NCBI GenBank assembly: GCA_019261985.1
Contig: JAFAQY010000011.1
Span: forward strand, 1-51,603
Direction of reading: 5' to 3'
Length of the DNA: 51,603 nucleotides
Source: Bryobacterales bacterium
GTDB taxonomy: Bacteria > Acidobacteriota > Terriglobia > Bryobacterales > Bryobacteraceae
The number at the start of each line of letters is the position of its first letter. The first letter of the stretch is position 1. The notes beneath the pieces were generated by a model that saw nothing but the letters and a program-made list of their open reading frames with translations, had not been told where the DNA came from and made no database searches. Positions 19,993 through 22,769 of the stretch are shown here, piece after piece. The position numbers were made by a program, and so were the translations under genes.

Positions 19993-21264
19993 CTACTTCA
20001 CTACGGGCAAAGCCTGGTTCATCTGGAAATGTAAGCAAGCATGCGCCGATCGGAGGGCTTGCTCGGCTCGCTCAGGCGTGGAACACCGTGCAAACAGAAA
20101 CCCGAGGTAGCTGGCGCCCTCTGGGAGCGCTTCCAACTTCTGTCCTTCCTTCGCCGTGATTTCCACCGCCGTAATACCGGGAACACGGCTGGCACTCTCC
20201 TGTCCGGATGCGCGCTGAAATATGCCTGACTCGGGTATGGGAATCATCATTACTCCGTGGGCGTCTGGAGTGAGAGAGATATGCGCAGGATGCTCCCCGA
20301 CTGCATGGAGCAACAAAAGTTCCTCTAGCGAGATTTCGTTGTAGGGCCGGTCGCTAAGCGGCGCATTGCCAACCAGCCCGGAAGAGGCGGACTGGCAGTC
20401 CGCCGCAGGTTGGCAACCTGGCCCACAAAACTTGAGCACTCGCGCGCACAAGCCGCCGATGGGCCTGGCGGCGGCTTCCAGCATCCAAACTCCGCGCGAA
20501 TTTACCCGCATTTCGGCGTGCACCGGACCATGGCTGAGCCCCAGGGCGTTCACAGCTTGCTGCGCCGCGGCGTGAATTGCCTGTTGAATTGCGCCGGTCT
20601 CTCTCGAAGGCGTTACGTAGATCGTTTCTTCGAAATAGGGGCCGTCCAGGGGATCGGGTTTGTCGAAAATGGCGAGCGTTTGCAGGCATCCGGCCGTAAC
20701 GATTCCTTCCAGCGCGAATTCGCTACCCGGAATGAAGTCCTCCACTAAAACCGCTTCGCCACGTGTGATCTTGCGAACGCGCGCGAGAGCTTCTTCGAAC
20801 TCGCGGGTGTTGTTGGCGCGAATCACACCGCGGCTTGCGGAGAGGTGGAGCGGTTTTAGCACGCACGGGTACTTAGGCTCATTTGCAGAGTAGAGGGAAT
20901 AAGCCGGAACCAGCATCCCCGCGGCGCGGAAGCGCTCGCGCGTTCGGAATTTATCGTTCGCGGCGCGCACGGATTGCGGCGAATGAAAGTGCAAACCCAG
21001 GCAGGCTGCGATTTCGGCGGCTACATAGGCCGGCTGGTCGCCAACGGCAACTATGCCATCGAAGGGGCCGCGTTGCTTCAGCGCTTCCATTGCACCTTGC
21101 GGATGCGCGAATTGCACTGGCGCGGCTCGGTCTGACCAGGGATCGTCCAGGATATGACAGCGGTCTGTCGCGAGAACCAGGTGGACGCCCAGGCGTTCGG
21201 CGGCGCCGTAAAACTCGCGGACTTGATAACCGGTTTTGGCGGCAACCAGCAATATTCGTTTCAT
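19993..21264 (-). CDS. ATP-grasp ligase-like protein, with a translated palindromic-repeat insertion
   Basis: The protein is 423 aa. An N-terminal pre-ATP-grasp Rossmann-like part (1-110, MKRILLVAAKTGYQVREFYG) precedes the ATP-grasp fold, with a YPCVLKPLHLSASRG lysine/glycine loop, EDFIPGSEFALEG, and the metal-binding region HAEMRVNSRGVWMLEAAARP. Such enzymes ligate a carboxylate to an amine through an acyl-phosphate. Residues about 280-296 (GPGCQPAADCQSASSG) are encoded by a palindromic repeat (20377-20426) inserted in frame. The gene lies directly downstream of the CUAEP-type radical SAM gene, suggesting one pathway. The start at 21264 is chosen over 21378 because upstream codons run through another repeat copy and the radical SAM tail. 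Substrate unknown. Confidence 0.85.
   Translation of the reverse strand: MKRILLVAAKTGYQVREFYGAAERLGVHLVLATDRCHILDDPWSDRAAPVQFAHPQGAMEALKQRGPFDGIVAVGDQPAYVAAEIAACLGLHFHSPQSVRAANDKFRTRERFRAAGMLVPAYSLYSANEPKYPCVLKPLHLSASRGVIRANNTREFEEALARVRKITRGEAVLVEDFIPGSEFALEGIVTAGCLQTLAIFDKPDPLDGPYFEETIYVTPSRETGAIQQAIHAAAQQAVNALGLSHGPVHAEMRVNSRGVWMLEAAARPIGGLCARVLKFCGPGCQPAADCQSASSGLVGNAPLSDRPYNEISLEELLLLHAVGEHPAHISLTPDAHGVMMIPIPESGIFQRASGQESASRVPGITAVEITAKEGQKLEALPEGASYLGFLFARCSTPERAEQALRSAHACLHFQMNQALPVVK
20377..20426. repeat. Palindromic double-hairpin repeat, copy A (inside the ATP-grasp gene)
   Basis: Hairpin 1 has arms GGCGGACT/AGTCCGCC (20386-20404, loop GGC). Hairpin 2 has arms CAGGTT/AACCTG (20406-20420, loop GGC). 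CCCAC follows at 20422-20426. It is flanked on the left by CCCGGAAGA. The order, loops and trailing CCCAC match copies B and C. Confidence 0.85.
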
Positions 21265-21322: not shown

Positions 21323-22666
21323 TCAGACCAGCGCGACCCGCGCCGGCGTTGGTTCCGCTCAACAGTACCATGGCTCATCGAGATACGGAATTGCGGCGCG
21401 GGGGATCAGATTATAGTTCGGCGCCGGCGATTTGCACGCGAGTTCCCATATATGCCTGAAAATCTCTGCGCGGCTTCCGCCCTTTTGCGGGTTCACGAGT
21501 TGAAAGACTCGATCCGCGAGCCGGTCCACTTCGGGGTCCGGATGGTTCCATGGATAAACCAGCGCCTCCGAATCGAACCCCTGGATCGCCCGGCGTATCT
21601 CGTCAAGTTCCAACAGGCGCGATCCCGATGTGACCAGGAGCCGAAGCGCAAGCTGCACGGGCGCGACGTTCTCGACCAAGTTCAAATCCGCGATCGTGCG
21701 AAGCAGATCGCGGTAGCCATCGAGACTGGTCCACGGGGTGAATGCGATGAAGGTCGGCGAGAGCGTTAGCCCGATTTCGCGCATAAAGCCGGCGACTTCA
21801 AAGAAATCGGAGCGAGTATGATGCTTCTCGAGTTTTGCGAGCACGGCATCGTCGATCGATTCGACCGCGCTCGTGACGAACAGGCACCCGGTCTGCTTCA
21901 GACATTTCAGCAGATCGCGGTGCTTGCGCAGGTGCTCGATTTTGATCGTCACGTCGTAAGTCAGCTGAGGGAACTCGGCATGCAGCGCTGTTACGATTTG
22001 CATCGCGTGCTTGGGACCATTAAAGAAATCCGGGTCCCCAAACGTCACGTGCGACGCTCCGGCGGCCACCTGCCGCCGGAGGTCGTCAAGCACAACTTCG
22101 CGGCTAACTACACGAAAGGTCCCCTGATAAACCGGAACCACGGGACAATGCCGGCAAAGATGTTTACAGCCGCGGCTACTTTCGGTGTACGCGACGAGGT
22201 GCTGCGTCCCGTTGACCCGCAGCTTCGCGTATCGGTCTAAAGTGGGGAGGTTGCTCCGTTCGGGTGGAAGGAAGGTTTGTCGGTCAAGCGAAATCTCGGG
22301 CGGATTCCCGCCGCGCGCGAACTCGACCAAGCCGGCTTCGAACTCCCCGCCTATGATGGCGTCCACTCCTCGGCCTCGAAGAAACGCAGCGTTCAGCGGC
22401 GCGTACAATCCGTACGCCGCGATGCGCGCGTGTCGATTTAACCGCTTCACGCGCTCGATAAGCGGCAGCGCGAGGCGCGTTGCCGTATGCATCGGGAGAT
22501 AGAACGCGATCAGTTCGGCAGCCTGGATTTGTTCGTCCGGAAGACGCTGTATGGAAACATCGGCGCAAACTACATCGTGGCCTTCGCGCGTGAGCCAAGC
22601 GGCGGGAGACGCCAAGCCAAACGGCTGCCGGCCCAGGTCATACGTCGAAACCAACAGTATCCTCAC
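21323..22666 (-). CDS. CUAEP-tail radical SAM selenoprotein (in-frame UGA read as Sec), B12-binding-type
   Basis: The protein is 447 aa if the TGA at 21359-21361 is read as selenocysteine (435 aa otherwise). The N-terminal part (1-130, MRILLVSTYDLGRQPFGLAS) looks like a cobalamin-binding-type domain. The radical SAM motif is TESSRGCKHLCRHCPVVP (CxxxCxxC), followed by a TIM-barrel with ESIDDAVLAKLEKHHT. The C-terminus reads PYLDEPWYC, then TGA, then Ala-Glu-Pro-Thr-Pro-Ala-Arg-Val-Ala-Leu-Val and a TGA stop. Cys-Sec-Ala-Glu-Pro is exactly the tail that names the CUAEP/CCAEP radical SAM (seleno)protein family. Start is GTG (22666-22664). It is followed by the ATP-grasp gene. Reaction unknown. 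Confidence 0.85.
21327..21353 (-). promoter_or_regulatory. Candidate bacterial SECIS hairpin after the Sec UGA
   Basis: In the mRNA, ACCA (21353-21350) pairs with UGGU (21330-21327), and GCGC (21343-21340) with GCGC (21334-21331). The apical loop is GGGUC, with a 6-nt one-sided bulge. The GGU of the loop begins 20 nt after the UGA; in E. coli fdhF a GGU loop lies 18 nt after it. Position and loop fit a SelB-binding element. The bulged U of the E. coli element is not obviously present. Confidence 0.55.
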
Positions 22667-22707: not shown

Positions 22708-22769
22708 GGTGTTGGTAACACCCGAAAAGGCCGATTGGCAATCGGCCGCGGGTTAGCAACCCGCCCCAC
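22708..22769. repeat. Palindromic repeat, copy B (three hairpins)
   Basis: There are three consecutive hairpins: GGTGTT/AACACC (22708-22722), GGCCGATT/AATCGGCC (22729-22747, loop GGC), and GCGGGTT/AACCCGC (22748-22764, loop AGC). CCCAC follows at 22765-22769. It lies upstream of the radical SAM start and ends next to the stop of the following gene. It aligns base by base with copy A. Confidence 0.85.

What the first reader, a model, noticed from the sequence alone, without database searches (positions are those of the whole stretch)
21323..22666. Hidden selenoprotein: a radical SAM gene whose UGA encodes Sec in a Cys-Sec-Ala-Glu-Pro tail
On the minus strand the apparent stop of the radical SAM gene is TGA (21361-21359), preceded by ...Glu-Pro-Trp-Tyr-Cys and followed in frame by GCG GAA CCA (Ala-Glu-Pro), then eight more codons and a TGA stop at 21325-21323. 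The CUAEP motif is the signature of the CUAEP/CCAEP-tail radical SAM (seleno)protein family, in which some members have Cys in the Sec position. An automatic annotation would cut the protein 12 residues short and hide the Sec.
Basis: partly seen in the sequence, partly recalled or inferred. Interest (0 to 1): 0.88.

Follow-up and report, generated by a model that had tools for sequence, protein, structure and literature searches.

The report
Radical SAM selenoprotein with hidden selenocysteine
A soil bacterium's gene appears to end too early because one UGA codon is very probably read as the rare amino acid selenocysteine; it is a good new example of an already named family whose chemical job is still unknown.

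Summary
On the minus strand, frame 22666-21323 contains a UGA (21361-21359) followed in frame by Ala-Glu-Pro and eight more codons, then a stop. The protein passes NCBIfam NF040546 'CUAEP/CCAEP-tail radical SAM (seleno)protein' (600 bits, cut-off 500). In 111 tails read (window included), 86 have UGA and 25 a Cys codon here, each followed by AEP. A bSECIS-like hairpin follows: 36 of 73 distinct UGA tails pass my strict test, against 1 of 20 Cys tails and about 5% of shuffles; the window passes. The genome has selA, selB and a selD with its own in-frame UGA. selC was not found by four searches, although six UGA-carrying congeners have it; I read this as an assembly gap, unresolved. Beyond the finding, an ATP-grasp/L-amino-acid-ligase gene directly follows in 34 of 72 usable loci, and an ATP-grasp gene sits in both RCCLKC-tail (ArsL-like) clusters fetched, hinting at a metalloid amino-acid or peptide pathway. 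Verdict: real; a new member of a known, little-studied family.

The parts
21323..22666 (-). radical SAM selenoprotein gene of the CUAEP/CCAEP-tail family (447 aa with Sec436; GTG start)
   Evidence: NF040546 600.4 bits over cut-off 500
22145..22168 (-). CxxxCxxC motif for the [4Fe-4S] cluster (Cys167, Cys171, Cys174)
   Evidence: sequence; invariant in the 42 aligned proteins (window and 41 of the 80 GTDB loci); PF04055 over cut-off
21359..21361 (-). UGA codon read as selenocysteine (Sec436; inferred)
   Evidence: 86 UGA and 25 Cys codons in 111 tails; selA, selB, selD in the genome
21327..21347 (-). bSECIS-like hairpin: 9-bp stem, loop GGU, 20 nt after the UGA, -15.0 kcal/mol
   Evidence: all 8 pairs scored for the family form in the window; on energy alone not exceptional for its composition (66 of 200 shuffles fold as well)
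21323..21325 (-). true stop codon (TGA)
   Evidence: next stop exactly 11 codons after the Sec codon in 65 of 83 UGA tails; next stops TGA 35, TAA 23, TAG 17, none within the stretch 8
19993..21264 (-). partner gene: ATP-grasp ligase with L-amino-acid-ligase C-terminal domain (PF13535, PF18603)
   Evidence: homologue directly downstream on the same strand in 34 of 72 loci with at least 1 kb downstream

Best explanation
The gene encodes a radical SAM enzyme (with a weak B12-binding-like N-terminal match) whose C-terminal tail carries a vicinal Cys435-Sec436 pair (CUAEP). The UGA is decoded as Sec by SelB with the hairpin 20 nt downstream. The Sec reading is well supported by comparison; decoding in this organism is inferred, because no protein was measured and no selC was found. 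Mechanism (inferred, about 0.3): the tail Cys/Sec pair lies where the nearest characterised relative, ArsL, has its RCCLKC tail, and it holds, hands over or reduces a soft substrate atom (As(III), Se or a thiol). A SAM-derived radical, possibly 3-amino-3-carboxypropyl as in ArsL, is then transferred to it. The adjacent ATP-grasp ligase would join the amino-acid product to another amino acid. The confidence given below is for the Sec reading alone.
For: NF040546 at 600 bits, second-best model ArsL at 275. UGA/Cys alternation before AEP in 111 of 111 tails. Six stem pairs of the hairpin hold in 92.5% of cells in 73 distinct UGA tails, against 55.8% in 20 Cys tails; in the UGA tails slid partners give at most 59.1% and partners dealt anew 82.2% (largest of 500 shuffles 85.2%) (the pairs were chosen from the window and L082). 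My strict bSECIS rule is met by 36 of 73 UGA and 1 of 20 Cys tails. The window keeps the stem although its residues there are P-A-R where relatives mostly have E-E-Q. selA, selB and selD are open in the genome; selD has its own in-frame UGA (AAGUASK) with a GGU-loop hairpin at the same spacing. Of 61 genomes, all 15 with a UGA copy have a selA match, 1 of 7 with a stop-free copy does. Partner ligase adjacent in 34 of 72 loci; an ATP-grasp gene also lies in the two RCCLKC clusters fetched; the tail Cys aligns with that of RCCLKC proteins.
Against: No selC in the assembly, though it is 98.8% complete and selC scores 64.9-76.8 bits in all six UGA-carrying congeners. 37 of 73 UGA tails miss the strict hairpin test, and the window hairpin's energy is not exceptional for its composition. 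The G000 selD hairpin at -5.9 kcal/mol misses the -7.5 limit. Cys tails still pair above their slid controls (55.8% against at most 40.0%). 31 of 72 loci have no ligase homologue within the fetched stretch, nor does the 13-kb T. roseum stretch list one. The two kinds of ligase share only 24-26% identity, and LAL_C2 is below cut-off in the RCCLKC-cluster ones, so the shared partner may be coincidence. No structure could be predicted, so the position of Sec relative to the cluster is unknown.
Confidence: 0.93

Rival explanations
1. The UGA is now a real stop in this lineage: selC was lost recently, the Sec machinery is left over, and the protein ends at Cys435.
For: selC not found by four searches. 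Six congeners with a stop-free copy have neither a selA match nor a clear tRNA-Sec, so the trait is patchy in this genus. The window protein's neighbour in the tree, L084, is a Cys form (support 83).
Against: selA, selB and selD sit on three separate contigs and are open (selA 483.5 bits, G015 486.1). The window hairpin is intact and the tail after the UGA still matches relatives. The congeners with a stop-free copy have no selA match, so machinery seems not to linger.
Confidence: 0.05
2. The UGA is decoded as another amino acid (suppressor tRNA or code change), not Sec.
For: selC absent from the assembly.
Against: The same frame ends at another TGA 11 codons on, at the place where relatives use all three stops. 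SelA, SelB and SelD are present, and a SECIS-like hairpin at the expected spacing follows the first TGA.
Confidence: 0.01
3. Function only (compatible with the Sec reading): the tail pair is a redox relay (selenylsulfide, as recalled for thioredoxin reductase tails) serving a non-arsenic reaction, for example C-methylation or C-S bond formation in a small peptide natural product, with the ligase making the peptide.
For: A B12-binding match below cut-off (23.6 against 32.1 bits) leaves methyl transfer possible. I saw no arsenic gene among recurrent neighbours, but those clusters were read by eye and not named by any model.
Against: The nearest characterised relative forms a C-As bond (PMC8552651, passages read), and an ATP-grasp gene occurs in the RCCLKC clusters beside arsenic genes.
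Confidence: 0.4

Closest known systems
NCBIfam NF040546, CUAEP/CCAEP-tail radical SAM (seleno)protein
   Same: Near full-length match over the curated cut-off; CUAEP tail; radical SAM cluster motif.
   Different: Nothing essential. The window member has the unusual tail TPARVALV and an assembly without a detectable selC.
NF040542 ArsL, arsinothricin biosynthesis radical SAM protein (RCCLKC tail)
   Same: 35% identity to two RCCLKC proteins, with the C-terminal Cys pair aligned; an ATP-grasp gene in the Alicyclobacillus and Priestia clusters.
   Different: Below the ArsL cut-off (275 against 450 bits); tail CUAEP instead of RCCLKC; UGA in most members read.
TrsS (NF045646) and TIGR04167 (rSAM_SeCys) radical SAM selenoproteins
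   Same: Also radical SAM proteins listed as selenoproteins in reviews (PMC13188914, passages read; PMC9312934, passages read).
   Different: Other families; neither is among the window protein's 16 NCBIfam hits at E 0.01. NF040546 does not occur in the main text of PMC13188914.

Membership tests
NF040546 CUAEP/CCAEP-tail radical SAM (seleno)protein | score over the curated cut-off | tested here: met
   600.4 bits against 500; the only match over the cut-off in its genome
NF040546 CUAEP/CCAEP-tail radical SAM (seleno)protein | C-terminal C-(U/C)-A-E-P | tested here: met
NF040546 CUAEP/CCAEP-tail radical SAM (seleno)protein | CxxxCxxC radical SAM motif | tested here: met
   Cys167, Cys171, Cys174; PF04055
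bacterial selenoprotein | in-frame UGA aligned with Cys in relatives | tested here: met
   86 UGA, 25 Cys codons of 111
bacterial selenoprotein | bSECIS: loop 3-9 nt with G in the first two, stem 4-16 bp, 16-37 nt from the UGA, MFE at most -7.5 (model as given in PMC13188914) | tested here: met
   window: loop GGU, 9 bp, 20 nt, -15.0 (my implementation, energy of the hairpin alone)
bacterial selenoprotein | selA, selB, selD in the genome | tested here: met
   each over its curated cut-off
bacterial selenoprotein | selC (tRNA-Sec) in the genome | tested here: inconclusive
   not found in a 138-contig assembly by four searches (the two RNA-model searches scored 150 of 1086 and 150 of 1601 first-look candidates); found in all six UGA-carrying congeners
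bacterial selenoprotein | selenium shown in the protein | not testable with these tools
   needs 75Se labelling or mass spectrometry
NF040542 ArsL | score over the curated cut-off | tested here: not met
   274.9 against 450 bits
NF040542 ArsL | RCCLKC tail | tested here: not met
   tail is CUAEP; the Cys pair aligns with RCCLKC in a six-sequence alignment
NF040542 ArsL | C-As bond formation | not testable with these tools
   biochemistry needed

The most novel reading that the evidence does not exclude
CUAEP proteins are selenocysteine-dependent cousins of ArsL that attach a SAM-derived amino-acid chain to a metalloid (arsenic or selenium) held by the tail Cys-Sec pair. With the ATP-grasp ligase they form a minimal two-gene pathway for a metalloid-containing peptide, spread through Acidobacteriota and some other phyla.
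Probability: 0.2. Interest if true: 0.78.

Novelty: new member of a known kind. Interest (0 to 1): 0.47.

Why it matters
A Sec residue in a radical SAM enzyme's tail is unusual and marks a residue that probably matters for the chemistry. The family has swapped between Sec and Cys repeatedly (10 changes needed on the tree, at least 8 forced by starred branches), so natural pairs exist to ask what selenium adds. The partner ligase and the ArsL kinship give a concrete, testable guess at a pathway. A member from a strain in culture (Thermomicrobium roseum DSM 5159), annotated too short, makes it testable at the bench.

Tried and rejected
Searched for selC beside selA, selB and selD (49,338 bases from three contigs): Rfam at E up to 5 gave nothing; ARAGORN on the selB stretch gave nothing, and its result for the other two stretches fell in the cut part. 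Synteny with G015's selC neighbour gave no match in G000. The nine Rfam tRNA-Sec hits in the own genome are ordinary tRNA-Ser, Gly, Trp, Cys and Lys genes (the ninth coincides with a tRNA-Gly in L006), so the one just over the cut-off (47.4 bits) is a false positive. The six own-genome hits of the custom model (at most 35.9 bits) are tRNA-Ser (three), Leu, Ala and His. ARAGORN with a loosened threshold gave only noise. Single-sequence folding did not separate the window hairpin from shuffles; mean z-score was -0.87 for 74 UGA tails and 0.02 for 20 Cys tails, so comparative tests were used. No solved structure matches by sequence. Recurrent neighbours other than the ligase were looked for (1336 stop-to-stop frames, read by eye); the largest cluster is the ligase, the example of the second overlaps it on the opposite strand, and no other was in more than 12 of 80 loci. 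No structure was obtained.

Literature (open-licence PMC only): 'CUAEP' 0 papers, 'RCCLKC' 0, 'arsinothricin' with 'ATP-grasp' 0, selenoprotein + radical SAM + Acidobacteria + selenocysteine 0. Haft and Gwadz 2023 and Haft and Tolstoy 2025 are not held and may treat this family; I saw only their titles in a reference list.

Full report
Observation. The minus-strand frame from GTG at 22666 runs to TGA at 21361-21359, after ...IPYLDEPWYC, and continues AEP-TPARVALV to TGA at 21325-21323. Everything in the finding's description is in the sequence.

Family. NCBIfam NF040546, 'CUAEP/CCAEP-tail radical SAM (seleno)protein', matches residues 3-443 at 600.4 bits (cut-off 500). The next model is ArsL at 274.9 bits (cut-off 450). 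Pfam gives Radical_SAM over its cut-off and a B12-binding match below cut-off. In the own genome this gene is the only match over the NF040546 cut-off.

Relatives. A scan of 201 related genomes (the own one included) found a match at E 1e-100 in 90; of the 92 matches 69 contain one TGA, 22 no stop (some of these do not reach the tail) and 1 a TAA. I read tails from 111 loci: the window's, the 30 returned and the 80. 86 have TGA, 20 TGC and 5 TGT, each followed by AEP (three first missed by my motif rule, L067, L100 and L101). The counts below use the first 108 (83 TGA, 25 Cys). Some genomes occur in both sets and the search seeds include the tail, so the rows are neither all independent nor a blind sample; 93 tails are distinct over the stretch used for pairing (L109 left out as too short). 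The next stop lies 11 codons on in 65 of 83 UGA tails; next stops are TGA (35), TAA (23), TAG (17) or none within the stretch (8). So the second TGA behaves as a stop and the first does not.

SECIS. A hairpin follows the UGA in a fixed register; I chose its pairs from the window and L082. Over the six inner pairs, 92.5% of cells in 73 distinct UGA tails are standard pairs, against 55.8% in 20 Cys tails. In UGA tails slid partners give at most 59.1%; dealing partners anew gives 82.2% on average, at most 85.2% in 500 shuffles. In Cys tails the slid maximum is 40.0% and the shuffled mean 46.7%, so some pairing remains there. Columns show several pair types (for example A-U 45, C-G 11, G-C 10). 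A strict bSECIS rule of mine, after the limits given in PMC13188914 (passages read), is met by 36 of 73 UGA tails, all at a spacing of 19-20 nt, by 1 of 20 Cys tails and by about 5% of mononucleotide shuffles. Thus 37 UGA tails fail it. The window has a 9-bp stem with loop GGU 20 nt after the UGA at -15.0 kcal/mol, with all eight scored pairs formed (the outer two form in only about a third of UGA tails), although the residues coded there are P-A-R where relatives mostly have E-E-Q. On its own its energy is not exceptional: 66 of 200 shuffles fold as well.

Machinery. The own genome (6.49 Mb, 138 contigs, 98.83% complete) has selA (483.5 bits, cut-off 267.9), selB (361 bits, cut-off 242.25) and selD (367.9 bits, cut-off 125). 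selD has an in-frame TGA in K-A-A-G-U-A-S-K-L with a GGU-loop hairpin at the same 20-nt spacing, though its -5.9 kcal/mol misses the strict limit. selC was not found: the Rfam hits are other tRNAs, a pattern gave nothing, BLAST with G015's selC and its flanks gave only short matches, and a covariance model that finds G015's gene at 109.3 bits gave six other tRNAs at 35.9 bits or less. The two model searches scored 150 first-look candidates each, of 1086 and 1601, so a very odd selC could have been missed. In 61 genomes scanned alike, 15 have a UGA copy, 7 a stop-free copy, 1 a match with a TAA, and 38 no match at E 1e-100. selA matches 15 of 15 UGA genomes (G028 only as two fragments below cut-off) and 1 of 7 stop-free genomes; a clear tRNA-Sec (over 60 bits) is in 12 of 15 and 1 of 7. 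The three UGA genomes without it are G000, G028 (80% complete) and G039 (64% complete). I did not read the tails of the six stop-free congeners themselves; relatives in the GTDB set that fall in the window's clade (L081, L084, L086, L087, L089) read CCAEP. I take the missing selC to be an assembly gap, because three unlinked Sec genes are intact and two UGA-plus-hairpin genes remain, but this is not shown.

Evolution. On a tree of 95 distinct proteins, with the tail left out, the Sec/Cys label needs 10 changes, at least 8 forced by starred branches (shuffled mean about 18) (quick method, no bootstrap; direction of change not determined). The window protein pairs with a Cys form, L084 (support 83), inside a mixed clade.

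Neighbourhood and function. The next gene (19993-21264, minus) is an ATP-grasp ligase with an L-amino-acid-ligase C-terminal domain. A homologue lies within 250 bp downstream on the same strand in 34 of 72 loci with at least 1 kb of downstream sequence; 5 have it further down, 2 upstream and 31 not in the stretch (8 of the 80 loci were too short). RCCLKC-tail proteins of Alicyclobacillus and Priestia plasmids, 35% identical to the window protein, lie in clusters that also hold an ATP-grasp gene (LAL_C2 similarity just below cut-off), together with arsM and arsN1 (Alicyclobacillus) or ArsR, ArsI and arsN1 (Priestia). Only these two of 17 or so such plasmid hits were fetched (one search lists 18 records, one of them the CUAEP protein of T. 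roseum). The two kinds of ligase share 24-26% identity, and the T. roseum stretch lists no ATP-grasp gene, so this is a lead, not proof. ArsL is reported to transfer the 3-amino-3-carboxypropyl group of SAM to As(III) (PMC8552651, passages read; PMC12159101, passages read). In a six-sequence alignment the tail Cys435 is shared by both families. From this I infer, without direct evidence, a soft-atom substrate bound or reduced by the Cys-Sec pair, and a ligase that uses the amino-acid product.

A cultured case. The listed CDS of Thermomicrobium roseum DSM 5159 (WP_012643191.1), 42% identical to the window protein, ends at ...ESWFC. The DNA continues TGA, then AEP and 20 more codons to the next TGA, with a 6-bp hairpin, loop GUC, at 20 nt. 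I did not check that strain for selA-D.

Novelty. The family has a public model and name, so the window gene is a new member of a known kind. No paper in the open library mentions CUAEP, and the 2026 review's main text does not contain NF040546, but two papers by the authors it credits with a related selenoprotein search are not held.

Noticed in passing
window 22729-22760 (-) and 20386-20417 (-): Two copies of a palindromic REP-like element (GTTGCNAACCNGCGGNNGAYTGNCARTCNNCC; none in 100 shuffles, but the pattern was made from these two copies). The second lies inside the ATP-grasp gene, without a stop, within a stretch of about 28 residues that the homologue in L082 lacks.
   Followed up: partly
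L178 5935-7371 (NC_011961.1, Thermomicrobium roseum DSM 5159): Listed CDS of a CUAEP-family protein stops at a UGA that is followed by AEP and a bSECIS-like hairpin; the annotation is probably 24 residues short (Sec and 23 more).
   Followed up: partly
L019 1531-1533 (own genome, contig C53): selD of the same genome is itself a likely selenoprotein: in-frame TGA in AAGUASKLSP with a GGU-loop hairpin 20 nt downstream.
   Followed up: yes
genomes G001-G022 (same genus): The Sec trait is patchy within one genus: selA matches 6 of these 22 genomes, the same six that carry a UGA copy of the gene and a clear tRNA-Sec.
   Followed up: partly
L179 1436-2668, L180 1483-2706: ATP-grasp genes inside arsinothricin-like RCCLKC clusters of Alicyclobacillus and Priestia plasmids, suggesting that the arsenic amino acid may be built into peptides.
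   Followed up: partly
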